64,000 nucleotides of DNA from Carboxylicivirga linearis (lineage in GTDB: Bacteria; Bacteroidota; Bacteroidia; Bacteroidales; Marinilabiliaceae). The notes beneath the pieces are model-generated. The model was not told where the DNA came from, ran no database searches, and was given only the letters and a program-made list of their open reading frames with translations. The stretch is from NCBI RefSeq assembly GCF_018271995.1, contig NZ_JAGUCO010000003.1, positions 310,001 through 374,000 of the forward strand, written 5' to 3'. A program made the position numbers and the translations under genes. Positions within the stretch are counted from its first letter, which is position 1. The number at the start of each line of letters is the position of its first letter. Shown here piece after piece: positions 27,401 to 54,527 of the stretch.

Positions 27401-28486
27401 ATGAAGAGGATCTTTATAATATTGGCAGTTGCCATATTAGGCACTTCAGTGATGAGTGCTCAGCATGCAAAAGCAAATTTAAATTTTAACGAAACCATTT
27501 ATGATTTTGGTGAGATTCAGGAATCAAAAGGTAAAGTTGAACACGTATTTAGTTTTAAAAACACTGGTGGTCAGCCAATGGTATTGCATAATGTAAAAGC
27601 TTCATGTGGTTGTACAACTCCGGAATGGACTAAGACACCTATCCCTCCTGGGGGAACTGGTGAAGTAAAAGCTACTTTTGATCCGCGAAATCGTCCGGGT
27701 AACTTCAATAAAACAATCACTGTTCAGTCAAATGCTCAGAACGGTACTGTTGTTTTGCGTATTACCGGTAAAGTGTTGCCACGTGAAAAAACAGTGGAAG
27801 ATATTTATCCACGTAACATGGATTTAATTCGATTGGAATCGTCTCATATGGCATTTACCAAAATGACTCCCGATCAGAAAAAATCAGAACAGCTAAAAAT
27901 AATAAGTACATCAGATGCACCTCTTAAGATTTCTTTTGCTAATGTGCCTAAGCATGTTACCATTAAATCGGTTCCTGAAGTATTGAAGCCTAACCAGGCA
28001 GGTGTAATTACAGCTACGTATGATGCATCTGTAAAGAATGATTGGGGATTTGTAACTGACAATGTTTTTATCAATTTTAATGATGAGAAAAATTACAAAA
28101 ACCGCTTAACTCTTAGTGCTTCTATTGAAGAGGATTTTAATAGCTGGAGTGCAGAAAAACTAGCTGAGGCTCCAGTAGTAAGTATTGAAGAGAAAACCTG
28201 GAATTTTGGTGATATTACGCAAGGAGATAAAGTTACCCATAAGTTTATGGTTAAAAATGATGGCAAAAGCGAGTTAGTTATTCGTAAAGTAAAAGCATCA
28301 TGTGGATGCACAGCTATAAAGCCGGCAAAAACGGTATTGGCTCCTGGCGAAACAACATCTATTGTTGCAGAATTTAATTCAGCACACAAAACAGGTCGTC
28401 AGAATAAGTCGGTTACTATTGTAACCAACGATCCTAAAAATACAACAACTTTGTTGCGAATCAGCGGAAACGTAACAATTCAGTAA
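27401..28486 (+). CDS. Secreted protein with two DUF1573 (ASH/HYDIN-like) domains
   Basis: The 361-residue protein has a signal peptide (MKRIFIILAVAILGTSVMSA). Two related Ig-like modules lie at about 27-125 and 262-360. Each carries a YDFGEI/WNFGDI opening, a V..FKNTG/V..VKNDG strand and a conserved KASCGCT motif (KASCGCTTPEW and KASCGCTAIKP). The centre (about 130-255) is a less conserved domain with a similar strand pattern. DUF1573 proteins are abundant in Bacteroidota envelopes; their function is not established. The paired CGC motifs may bind metal or form disulfides. It has its own 5' region with a palindrome and a terminator after it. Confidence 0.9.
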   Translation: MKRIFIILAVAILGTSVMSAQHAKANLNFNETIYDFGEIQESKGKVEHVFSFKNTGGQPMVLHNVKASCGCTTPEWTKTPIPPGGTGEVKATFDPRNRPGNFNKTITVQSNAQNGTVVLRITGKVLPREKTVEDIYPRNMDLIRLESSHMAFTKMTPDQKKSEQLKIISTSDAPLKISFANVPKHVTIKSVPEVLKPNQAGVITATYDASVKNDWGFVTDNVFINFNDEKNYKNRLTLSASIEEDFNSWSAEKLAEAPVVSIEEKTWNFGDITQGDKVTHKFMVKNDGKSELVIRKVKASCGCTAIKPAKTVLAPGETTSIVAEFNSAHKTGRQNKSVTIVTNDPKNTTTLLRISGNVTIQ

Positions 28487-51122: not shown

Positions 51123-53030
51123 ATGGACATTTTTCATCACATACTAAAACAATACTGGGGGTATACTCAGTTCAGACCCTTGCAAGAGGATATTATACGT
51201 TCGGTAGCATCGGGTAAAGACACGCTGGGTCTAATGCCAACTGGTGGAGGTAAGTCGTTGACCTTTCAGGTTCCCGGATTAGCCAAAGAAGGCATTTGTT
51301 TGGTGGTTACACCCTTGATTGCCTTGATGAAAGATCAGGTAGCTAATTTGCGTAGTCGTGATGTAAAAGCTGCAGCTATTCATTCTGGTCTTACGCGTGA
51401 TGAAATAAATGTAATTCTTGAGAACTGCATTTTTGGTGGAACCAAGTTTTTGTATTTATCACCTGAACGGATTGGAACCGAATTATTCCTTGAAAAGTTA
51501 CCTCATATGCCGGTTTCGATGCTGGCTATTGATGAGGCGCATTGTATATCGCAGTGGGGATATGATTTTCGTCCTTCATATTTAAAGATTGCAGAAGTAA
51601 GAGAACATTTGCCTGATGTGCCGGTTCTTGCTCTTACAGCAACAGCCACACCAGATGTGGTGAAGGATATTCAGCAAAAATTGCTTTTCAAAGAAGATAA
51701 TGTATTTGAAAAAAGTTTTAAGCGCGATAACCTGGCTTATGTGGTGCGGTATGCCGAGGATAAAGAAGAGCAGTTGGTAAAGGTGCTGCAAAAAGTACCG
51801 GGTAGTGCTGTGGTATATGTTCGAAGTCGCAAAAAAACCAAAGAGTATGCGGAGTTATTGTTGAAGAATGGAATTTCAGCATCCTCATTTCATGCAGGGA
51901 TGCCCCAGGAGGTGAAAGACGAAAAGCAAAAGCGTTGGACTCAAAATGAAATACGGGTAATGGTTTCGACCAATGCCTTTGGAATGGGAATTGATAAACC
52001 CGATGTGCGTGTGGTTGTACATATGGATGCACCCGATTCGTTGGAAGCTTATTTTCAAGAGGCTGGGCGTGCCGGCAGGGACGAGAAAAAGGCATATGCC
52101 TTGCTGTTGTGGTCCAATAACGATAAAGCGCGATTAAAGCGAAGCATCCCAATGTCTTTTCCTGAAAAAGAAACTATTTTAAATGTTTACAAAGCTTTAG
52201 GTAATTTCTTTCAATTAGCTGTTGGCAGTGGTTTTGGTATGGTATACGATTTTGATATGGGCTTATTTTGCAGCACTTACAAAATGAATGTGATGGTGGT
52301 GTTCAATAGCCTTAAGATTCTGCAGCGTGCCGGATATCTCGAATTCACCGAAGAGTTGAATTTATCATCCAAAGTAATTTTTATTTTGCGCCGCGATGAG
52401 TTGTATAAATTTCAGGTTGCTAATGAGGATTATGATACTTTCATTAAACTATTGCTTCGGTCATACACCGGATTGTTTACAGAGTATGTTTCAATTAATG
52501 AAGAGGTGTTGGCAAAGCGAATGAATGTTACCCGTCAGGTGATTTACGAATACCTGGTTACCTTATCAAAATTAAAGGTGATAAAATTTATTCCTCAGCG
52601 TAAAACTCCACTTATTACGTATACAACATCGCGCGAGGATACCAAGTATATTGAACTGCGTAAGGAAGTTTATAAAGACAGAAAAACGCGTTATGAAGAT
52701 CGTATTGAAAGTGTAATTGAATACGGAAGTACCAATCATATTTGTAGGAGTAAGTTGTTGTTAAGCTACTTTGGTCAGAAAAATATTGAAAACTGCGGGC
52801 AATGTGATGTCTGTCAGCAAATGAAAAAGACTGATCTTTCGGTTAATACCTTTGATGAAATAGAGCAGCAGGTTAAAAAACTACTTAGGAATAATCCCAT
52901 GACCTTCAATGAACTGTCGCTTCAATTGAAAGTAGATGAAAATGATCTTCAGAAAGTAATCCGATGGCTTGAAGAATACGAAGTGATGGGTGAGAATGAA
53001 CAAGGGAAGTTTGAATGGTGGCGCAATTAG
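51123..53030 (+). CDS. recQ: RecQ-family ATP-dependent DNA helicase
   Basis: The 635-residue 3'-5' helicase acts in recombination and fork repair. Motif 0 is YWGYTQFRPLQEDIIRSVAS. The Walker A is MPTGGGKSLTFQ (Lys44), the Walker B is AIDEAHCISQWGYDFRPSY, and motif III is ALTATATPDVV. Domain 2 contains VMVSTNAFGMGIDKPDVRVV and YFQEAGRAGRDE. The zinc-binding segment has HICRSKLLLSYFG and CGQCDVC. A winged-helix-like end follows, but no typical HRDC domain is visible, which fits a shorter Bacteroidota RecQ paralogue. It is followed by the large repeat-bearing gap. Confidence 0.95.
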   Translation: MDIFHHILKQYWGYTQFRPLQEDIIRSVASGKDTLGLMPTGGGKSLTFQVPGLAKEGICLVVTPLIALMKDQVANLRSRDVKAAAIHSGLTRDEINVILENCIFGGTKFLYLSPERIGTELFLEKLPHMPVSMLAIDEAHCISQWGYDFRPSYLKIAEVREHLPDVPVLALTATATPDVVKDIQQKLLFKEDNVFEKSFKRDNLAYVVRYAEDKEEQLVKVLQKVPGSAVVYVRSRKKTKEYAELLLKNGISASSFHAGMPQEVKDEKQKRWTQNEIRVMVSTNAFGMGIDKPDVRVVVHMDAPDSLEAYFQEAGRAGRDEKKAYALLLWSNNDKARLKRSIPMSFPEKETILNVYKALGNFFQLAVGSGFGMVYDFDMGLFCSTYKMNVMVVFNSLKILQRAGYLEFTEELNLSSKVIFILRRDELYKFQVANEDYDTFIKLLLRSYTGLFTEYVSINEEVLAKRMNVTRQVIYEYLVTLSKLKVIKFIPQRKTPLITYTTSREDTKYIELRKEVYKDRKTRYEDRIESVIEYGSTNHICRSKLLLSYFGQKNIENCGQCDVCQQMKKTDLSVNTFDEIEQQVKKLLRNNPMTFNELSLQLKVDENDLQKVIRWLEEYEVMGENEQGKFEWWRN

Positions 53031-53196
53031 CCAATTATTTAAAAAGAGAGAAGACGGAAGACAGAATATCCATTTGCTTTTTGAATATGTCAATCACAAT
53101 TCAACGATTTAACAGTTCAACAACTTAACAATGAAAGACGGAGAACCAAATTCCATCATTATTAATCCATAACCATAAACAATTTATACAGGTGAA
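53031..53196. other. Intergenic segment before the 21-bp array
   Basis: There is no gene here. A short direct repetition occurs at about 53098-53130 (TTCAACGATTTAACAG followed by TTCAACAACTTAACA). Such ATTTAACAATTCAAC-like strings are common low-complexity sequence in Bacteroidota spacers. No terminator for recQ is evident. Confidence 0.4.
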
Positions 53197-53616
53197 AAAG
53201 GTGCAAGGGGTTACCTCTGAGGTACCCCTCCCCACCTTGAAGCTCGACGTTTCGACCTTTTACCTCGGGTGATGAAGCAAAAAGCTCGATGAATGGAGAT
53301 TTTACCTTGGTGATATCACCTCTGAGGTACTCTTTTCCACCTCAAAGGTTAACGCTCGGCCCCTTAACCTCGAACGATGGAGCAAAAAGCTTGGTGTGTG
53401 GATCTTTTTAGTCGACGCTTGAACCAAAAAGCTCGGCGTTTCGACCTTTTAACTTGGGTATTGGAGCAAAAAACTTAGAAAGCGGATCTTTTTTGGCAGC
53501 GAATGTACCTTTAATGGTAAGGTATGATCTTCAAAGCCCGGTACATTCACCTTTTTTCTTCAGTGTTGAACCTCAAATACAGGAAAGCCGACCTAAAAGA
53601 CCAGTGTATTGATCAA
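53197..53616. repeat. Degenerate 21-bp tandem array, 20 units, with phased A/T-tracts
   Basis: The 420 bp divide without a gap into twenty 21-bp units. The best-conserved units start AAAGCTCGGCG and end CGACCTT (53239-53259 and 53428-53448); others alternate with units ending in GAGCAA or GAACCAA, giving a 42-bp super-period over much of the array. Unit borders create short A- or T-tracts centred near 53260, 53281, 53302, 53386, 53407, 53428, 53449, 53470, 53491 and 53554, all multiples of 21 bp apart. Units 53218-53238 and 53323-53343 are a second closely matching pair (TGAGGTAC start). Read in the unit frame, 8 of 20 units contain a stop codon, so it is not a gene. GC content is higher than in neighbouring spacers. 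Confidence 0.85.
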
Positions 53617-53897
53617 TTTATCATGAAGTGACTTATTAGTATTTTGAACTCCGACTATAAAATTAGCTGAGTAGGGTAGGCCGGGGTAAAGTATTAATTA
53701 AACGATGTGTCGATTATTGCCAGAGTATAAAATTGCAGTTGCCTTCTGTTACAATTAATCATTAATGTATCGCTCATCACCAATCCTTTTACATAGTCAT
53801 TAGCTATTCGCTTTTAGGTGCACTCTCCTTTTTTTTTCTTACTTTTGCTCGACAATTATTAGTATACAGAACGTAGCGAGGGAGATTATTAAATAGT
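53617..53897. other. Intergenic segment after the 21-bp array
   Basis: There is no gene in this stretch. The 21-bp pattern fades within about 40 bp. Two similar strings, GACTATAAAATTAGC and GAGTATAAAATTGCA, occur about 75 bp apart. TACTTTTG at 53840-53847 fits the -7 consensus, 50 bp before the DUF5063 start. Confidence 0.4.
53840..53847 (+). promoter_or_regulatory. Candidate -7 element of the DUF5063 operon
   Basis: TACTTTTG fits TAnnTTTG, 50 bp upstream of the ATG at 53898 and downstream of a T-rich run. No -33 element is convincing. Confidence 0.42.
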
Positions 53898-54527
53898 ATG
53901 GAAGAACCATTAAAGCATGTAGTTTATTCGAAAAATGTGATTGAATTTGTGACGGTAGCCAAAGAATATTGCGAATTTTTGGAAGGTGCCGAACAATACC
54001 CTCGACGCGAATTTATTACTATTGCCACCCGCATTATTCCTCTTCTTTATATAAAAGCCAGTATGTTATCAAGAGTTGAAGCTCAGATGGAAGATGAACT
54101 GGAAAAGACAGTGGATGAGATGACCTATGCACATATTCAGAATAAGATTGAACTATTATTGGGTCGCTTCAACGATTACCTGGAAGTATTTAATCAGGAT
54201 ATGCAACGAAGTGATACGCCGGTAATTTCGTATATTGCAGAGGATTTTACGGACATGTATCAGGACCTGAAAGATTTTATTTCATCGTATCGTATAGGAG
54301 TTACTGAAATAATGAATGATGCTTTGTCGGCGGTTCAGGAAAATTTTGAATTGTATTGGGGGCAAAAAGCCGTGAATACCTTGAGGGCTCTTCATGCCGT
54401 ATTATATGGAGAAGAAGACCTGGATGAAGAGGAAGGTGAAGAAGAGGTGAAAGAGGAAAGAAGAAAGGATACCTGGTTCGATCGTTTTCAAAAAGAATGG
54501 TCGGATGAAGATGATGAACTTAGTTAA
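53898..54527 (+). CDS. DUF5063 domain protein
   Basis: The 209-residue soluble helical protein has VIEFVTVAKEYCEFLEGAEQ, PRREFITIATRIIPLLYIKA, and later YIAEDFTDMYQDLKDFISSY and FELYWGQKAVNTLRALHAVL. These match DUF5063. The C-terminus is strongly acidic (EEDLDEEEGEEEVKEE). Its position just before a 3'-5' exonuclease and an rRNA methyltransferase is repeated in many Bacteroidota, so a role in RNA or ribosome biology is an inference. No function is established. Confidence 0.88.
   Translation: MEEPLKHVVYSKNVIEFVTVAKEYCEFLEGAEQYPRREFITIATRIIPLLYIKASMLSRVEAQMEDELEKTVDEMTYAHIQNKIELLLGRFNDYLEVFNQDMQRSDTPVISYIAEDFTDMYQDLKDFISSYRIGVTEIMNDALSAVQENFELYWGQKAVNTLRALHAVLYGEEDLDEEEGEEEVKEERRKDTWFDRFQKEWSDEDDELS

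What the first reader, a model, noticed from the sequence alone, without database searches (positions are those of the whole stretch)
53197..53616. Strictly 21-bp-periodic array with A/T-tracts in helical phase
Twenty back-to-back 21-bp units fill 420 bp between recQ and the DUF5063 gene. Unit identity is low, but length is kept exactly, including two places where an extra 21-bp half-step breaks the 42-bp super-period. Ten A/T-tracts fall at multiples of 21 bp, two turns of B-DNA. Conserved spacing with drifting sequence suggests selection for geometry (intrinsic bend, nucleoid-protein or polymerase docking) rather than for a protein; 8 of 20 units have stops in the unit frame. I do not know a named repeat family with this period.
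Basis: seen in the sequence. Interest (0 to 1): 0.8.

Follow-up and report, generated by a model that had tools for sequence, protein, structure and literature searches.

The report
Helix-phased DNA array beside unknown gene
A strictly 21-base-periodic stretch of non-coding bacterial DNA is real, and sequences built the same way turn up right after the gene of an unnamed small protein in many Bacteroidota, which suggests an undescribed protein-plus-DNA-platform system.

Summary
In detail: 53197-53616 has autocorrelation peaks at 21, 42, 63, 84, 105 and 126 bp, z 6.6-11.2. The strongest period is 105 bp (5x21). The array is non-coding and absent around the DUF5063 gene in 13 of 13 congeners.

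Across 85 copies of that gene, the strongest downstream period is 21, 22, 42, 43 or 44 bp in 70; upstream in 13 of 83. In genes drawn after the link was seen it is 23 of 30.

Unit letters differ between arrays. Shared are palindromic units in helical phase, a terminator-like hairpin between gene and array in 31 of 53 (2.6 expected) and no variable spacers. The window array is a gene-less copy.

Best reading: a duplex-DNA platform bound cooperatively, probably by the neighbour-gene protein. Linkage and geometry are shown; binding and function are inferred.

The parts
53197..53616 (+). 21-bp-periodic array, 20 units; + strand corresponds to the sense of the linked gene at the C88 locus
53212..53237 (+). 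C-rich palindromic unit TACCTC-T-GAGGTACCCCTCCCCACCT, shared with arrays in other genera
   Evidence: similar units downstream of 14 of 85 linked genes
53218..53322 (+). first 105-bp block (five 21-bp unit types)
53323..53427 (+). second 105-bp block
53428..53511 (+). third block, 84 bp, one unit type missing
53512..53616 (+). fourth block, strongly diverged
   Evidence: weak
51123..53030 (+). recQ helicase gene (neighbour, not part of the element)
53898..54527 (+). DUF5063 gene (neighbour, not part of the element)

Best explanation
The array belongs to a class of helically phased palindromic arrays that normally sit just downstream of a gene for an uncharacterised protein of about 157 residues (predicted mostly helical, at low confidence). 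I think the array is a duplex-DNA platform. Palindromic half-sites recur at whole helical turns, so a two-fold-symmetric protein, most simply the product of the linked gene, binds side by side on one face of the helix and forms a cooperative nucleoprotein patch. Helical spacing and dyad symmetry are held; the letters drift together within each array. The patch would act as a local anchor (segregation-like or nucleoid-organising) or as a barrier beyond the gene's 3' end. The window copy is a gene-less satellite that could be served in trans by the protein made at the other locus of the same genome. Shown here: periodicity, dyads, gene linkage, terminator position, absence in congeners. Inferred: binding, cooperativity, function.
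For: Linkage: best downstream period is 21/22/42/43/44 in 70 of 85 gene copies against 13 of 83 upstream, 51 of 62 (49 above every one of 20 shuffles) against 10 of 60 upstream; in the rows fetched after the link was seen (L109-L137) 23 of 30. Pattern test: of 8 public contigs holding the shared unit, the 5 inside 21-bp arrays lie in genomes that have the gene (4 genomes; L075 is from the same isolate as L073), and the 3 outside arrays lie in genomes where none was found. Geometry: palindromicity repeats at 10.5, 21, 31.5 and 42 bp; pairing at the best dyad phase 0.429, at the best other phase 0.348, mean of others 0.246, over 50 arrays. DNA level: terminator-like hairpin between stop codon and array in 31 of 53 against 2.6 in shuffles. 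Letters track the protein: word similarity rises with protein identity over 51 arrays (Mantel r 0.316, reached by 0 of 2000 permutations).
Against: No DNA-binding fold was recognised; both AlphaFold models are poor (pLDDT 58 and 61) and fold searches gave nothing usable. Mean net charge of the protein is -3.1, with a positive C-terminal tail in 22 of 29. Two Sunxiuqinia paralogues 94% identical have clearly different array words. The Mantel result may be plain co-inheritance. Eleven of 62 gene copies lack a fitting period, and three of the five pattern-found arrays (L071, L075, L076) have no family gene in the DNA fetched around them. The 10.5-bp dyad spacing follows automatically once 21-bp units are palindromic. 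The window array's own palindromes are weak (pairing 0.36).
Confidence: 0.5

Rival explanations
1. A repeat that spreads: gene plus array is a REPtron-like selfish unit, arrays are copied to new sites by the protein or by recombination, and the window array is a non-autonomous offspring.
For: Gene-less copy at a site where 13 of 13 congeners have none; other arrays without a gene nearby in L071, L075, L076; patchy presence, 23 of 149 relatives and 31 of 395 Bacteroidota, this genome included in both; up to 6 gene copies per genome; BLAST homology between the two array loci of this genome is confined to the array.
Against: No transposase family match; only two array loci found in this genome; I identified no target-site duplication, though I made no systematic search for one; the C88 gene and array are in the same place in a sister species; upstream arrays are not seen above chance.
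Confidence: 0.22
2. Passive DNA element: phased A-tracts and palindromes bend DNA or place a host nucleoid protein or RNA polymerase; the linked protein is incidental.
For: A-tracts in phase here and in 36 of 54 arrays at p 0.05; the W/S pattern repeats at 21 bp.
Against: The tight gene linkage and GC-rich arrays with two A-tracts only (L117, L155).
Confidence: 0.14
3. The array is transcribed and works as RNA, for example a guide array like TIGR, or a stack of stem-loops read by the protein.
For: Minus-strand fold somewhat better than shuffles (z -2.8); alternating unit types recall TIGR dual repeats (passages of PMC12045711).
Against: No variable spacers: median longest low-information run 3 columns, 8 or more in only 2 of 52 arrays, both with five units; plus strand z -1.2; no Rfam match; arrays often lie beyond the gene's terminator.
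Confidence: 0.08
4. Decayed coding repeat or ordinary minisatellite.
For: Period is a multiple of 3; tandem duplication clearly shapes the arrays (neighbouring 105-bp blocks 91% and 71% like the first at C88).
Against: Stops in all six frames of the window array and of the C88 array; the 22- and 43-bp periods are not multiples of 3; the same period after the same gene in distant genomes.
Confidence: 0.03

Closest known systems
Plasmid iterons with Rep, and ParB/ParR/StbA-type centromere arrays (recalled)
   Same: Short tandem sites spaced by whole helical turns beside the gene of one small protein
   Different: Found on chromosomal-type contigs, several divergent copies per genome, unit letters not conserved; no Pfam match to any Rep or Par family; array often beyond the gene's terminator
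REP/RAYT elements (REPtrons; PMC3733652, passages read)
   Same: Palindromic intergenic repeats associated with a gene of the host genome, also found without it
   Different: No transposase match; two array loci here, not many dispersed copies; strict 21-bp tandem order; one-sided
TIGR-Tas arrays (PMC12045711, passages read)
   Same: Small stand-alone protein next to an array of alternating units
   Different: No variable spacers, repeat of 42-44 bp where tigRNAs are 36 nt, no Nop match in Pfam
Bacterial minisatellites / VNTRs (recalled)
   Same: Tandem repeats that grow and shrink in blocks
   Different: Length is tied to the helix, units are palindromic, and the position is tied to one gene family

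Membership tests
Iteron / centromere (ParB, ParR, StbA) array | Tandem sites at helical spacing | tested here: met
Iteron / centromere (ParB, ParR, StbA) array | Linked gene belongs to a known Rep or Par family | tested here: not met
   0 of 29 members match such a Pfam family; no NCBIfam match for 4 members
Iteron / centromere (ParB, ParR, StbA) array | Protein binds the array | not testable with these tools
   needs EMSA or ChIP
REP / RAYT | Y1 tyrosine transposase gene | tested here: not met
   no Pfam match in 28 of 29 members, one weak unrelated hit (KIF21A_2nd, E 0.008) in the other
REP / RAYT | Many dispersed copies in the genome | tested here: not met
   two array loci in G000 by blastn and by a 105-position model; arrays with unrelated letters would be missed
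TIGR-Tas | Conserved edge/loop repeats with variable spacers of about 9 nt | tested here: not met
   (52 arrays)
TIGR-Tas | Nop-domain protein | tested here: inconclusive
   no Pfam match, but structure models too poor to compare folds
Rfam RNA families | Match to a curated model | tested here: not met
   0 matches at E up to 1 in 52900-54000
Intrinsically curved A-tract DNA | A-tracts in helical phase | tested here: met
   window 11.5 of 12; not general, 36 of 54 arrays at p 0.05; curvature itself was not computed

The most novel reading that the evidence does not exclude
An undescribed, widespread protein-plus-DNA system of Bacteroidota: a protein that reads DNA by helical spacing and dyad symmetry, in the extreme with little dependence on sequence, polymerises on a palindromic array beside its own gene and can act on gene-less arrays elsewhere in the chromosome, a chromosomal analogue of a centromere or of a nucleosome-like docking patch.
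Probability: 0.3. Interest if true: 0.93.

Novelty: categorically new. Interest (0 to 1): 0.8.

Why it matters
A protein family without a name is tied, in genera far apart, to DNA whose letters drift while its helical geometry does not. If the protein binds these arrays, it is a clean natural case of recognition by spacing and symmetry, and a chromosomal anchor or barrier that the family libraries searched here do not cover. The solo copy between recQ and DUF5063 gives a testable locus: does the protein of another locus occupy it?

Tried and rejected

Phylum of the second lineage: record titles call L073 and L075 Verrucomicrobiaceae, but the genome search drew what looks like the same sample for the phylum of that genome and for that of a Rhodospirillales genome, so it is probably Pseudomonadota; I do not claim Verrucomicrobiota.

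Full report
THE OBSERVATION. The stretch 53197-53616 is periodic at 21 bp far beyond chance: against 1000 dinucleotide shuffles the identity at lags 21, 42, 63, 84, 105 and 126 stands 6.6 to 11.2 standard deviations up, and no shuffle exceeded 4.7 at any lag to 130. The strongest lag is 105, because five unit types follow one another in fixed order; one block lacks a unit, giving spacings of 105 and 84. Eleven of twelve A/T tracts are in phase. All six frames hold stops, and no member of the protein family described below is recognisable in the window, best E 3.8.

AGE AND PLACE. The DUF5063 gene was found in all 14 genomes of the genus, and the 13 others show no 21-bp array within about 1.5 kb of it: their best 21-bp score is 0.405 against 0.528 here. 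In G006, whose DUF5063 protein is the most similar, recQ and DUF5063 are 223 bp apart against 867 bp here. In this genome one other locus is related: contig C88, pieces 77-85% identical. A sequence model of the 105-bp block finds only these two places here and the C88 counterpart in G001; its two weak hits elsewhere in the genus are chance. Both searches see only arrays with similar letters.

THE LINKED GENE. The C88 array and its counterpart in G001 follow a gene for a 159-aa protein. Three of the eight public contigs found with a 19-letter pattern from the shared unit are Prolixibacteraceae: Sunxiuqinia, Maribellus, Mangrovibacterium. Their arrays have 21-bp units with other letters. The Sunxiuqinia array follows a gene of the same family, and so does that of L073; for L071, L075 and L076 no family gene lies in the DNA fetched around the array, though the genomes have one elsewhere. 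The family has no Pfam match beyond one weak unrelated hit (29 members), no NCBIfam match (4 members) and no significant PDB sequence match (best E 0.22). Median pairwise identity is 32%.

TESTING THE LINK. I first saw the link in relatives, then tested it on genes drawn from 395 genomes across the phylum (the tool returned one locus for most genomes, so further copies were not all examined). In one search, 51 of 62 copies have their strongest downstream periodicity (of 12-59) at 21, 22, 42, 43 or 44 bp, 49 of them above all of 20 shuffles; upstream 10 of 60; by chance about one in ten. One more copy was set aside for lack of downstream DNA. Counting only the rows fetched after the link was seen (L109-L137), 23 of 30 fit, 22 of them above all shuffles. 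With more copies added the count is 70 of 85, plus two at 32 bp, about three helical turns, against 13 of 83 upstream. Copies are related to each other and one interrupted gene (L143) is counted as two pieces, so these are not independent trials. The eleven exceptions are L090 and L125 (best period 32), L093, L101, L122, L123, L132, L133, L135, the first gene of the L136 pair and the plasmid copy L138. In 327 kb of fetched DNA away from these positions, 7 stretches pass the same threshold, against 15 in 24 kb downstream of the genes; four of the 7 are masked, low-complexity or shorter repeats, and the other three, the window among them, were known or fetched for their array.

ANATOMY. The arrays are rows of palindromes: the dyad signal repeats at 10.5, 21, 31.5 and 42 bp and at none of the other spacings printed; the half-steps follow from palindromic units of 21 bp. 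Pairing at the best dyad phase averages 0.429, at the best other phase 0.348, at the others 0.246, in 50 arrays; exchanging arms among units lowers it little (0.430 to 0.404, mean z 0.85), so symmetric sites rather than stems are kept. A C-rich unit (GGGGTACYT or its complement) occurs downstream of 14 of 85 genes and upstream of none, at the far end of the array in the two Sunxiuqinia copies. Between stop codon and array 31 of 53 loci have a terminator-like hairpin by a loose rule, 2.6 expected in base shuffles. Columns of the 42-44 bp repeat show no spacer-like runs.

EVOLUTION. Two Sunxiuqinia paralogues have 86-93% identical DNA in and around the gene and beyond the array, yet array units with visibly different words (the alignment list was cut at eight rows) and a word correlation of 0.21 at 94% protein identity. 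Other pairs keep alignable arrays (L128/L129, 89% over gene and array). Word similarity rises with protein identity over 51 arrays (Mantel r 0.316; below 70% identity r 0.223); common descent alone could give this. Distribution is patchy: 23 of 149 relatives and 31 of 395 Bacteroidota, this genome included in both, and 2 of 398 in the phylum of the second lineage, one of which was the centre of the search.

MECHANISM. Position beyond the terminator, dyads in helical phase, tolerance of letters and lack of spacers or stable RNA folds favour a duplex-DNA site for a symmetric protein bound side by side. The linked gene is the simplest candidate. That it binds, and what the patch does, is inference. 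The structure models are too poor to show a fold. A spreading repeat is the main rival and may be true at the same time, since the window array is a gene-less newcomer.

LITERATURE. Eight searches of the held library aimed at this subject listed no paper whose title or abstract start describes such arrays or the protein; five of the eight returned nothing because many terms were required together, so the net was coarse. One further search located the TIGR paper. Two papers were read in passages only: PMC12045711 and PMC3733652. Most subscription journals and all preprints are not held, so prior description cannot be excluded.

Noticed in passing
window 27700-28300 and about 30060: Secondary periodicities of 108 bp and 90 bp, multiples of 3 and so possibly protein repeats.
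   Followed up: no
window 53044-53132: Short imperfect repeats of 7 and 16 bp between recQ and the array.
   Followed up: no
L050 5550-5602: Sequence just beyond the C88 array recurs at two places in G006, a genome in which the gene was not found.
   Followed up: partly
L057 286-570 and 866-1117: In G001 the region before DUF5063 holds two short ORFs with similar stretches, possibly another lineage-specific duplication in the same place.
   Followed up: no
L070 near 5007: A 16-bp tandem repeat lies upstream of the Sunxiuqinia gene; stretches upstream of the gene match its paralogue's locus several times.
   Followed up: partly
L159 and L160: Two paralogues in one genome share 91% over 1.44 kb, with a nearly identical stretch after the gene, suggesting recent conversion.
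   Followed up: partly
L073, L075: Record titles say Verrucomicrobiaceae, but the genome search seems to group this genome with a Rhodospirillales genome at phylum level.
   Followed up: partly
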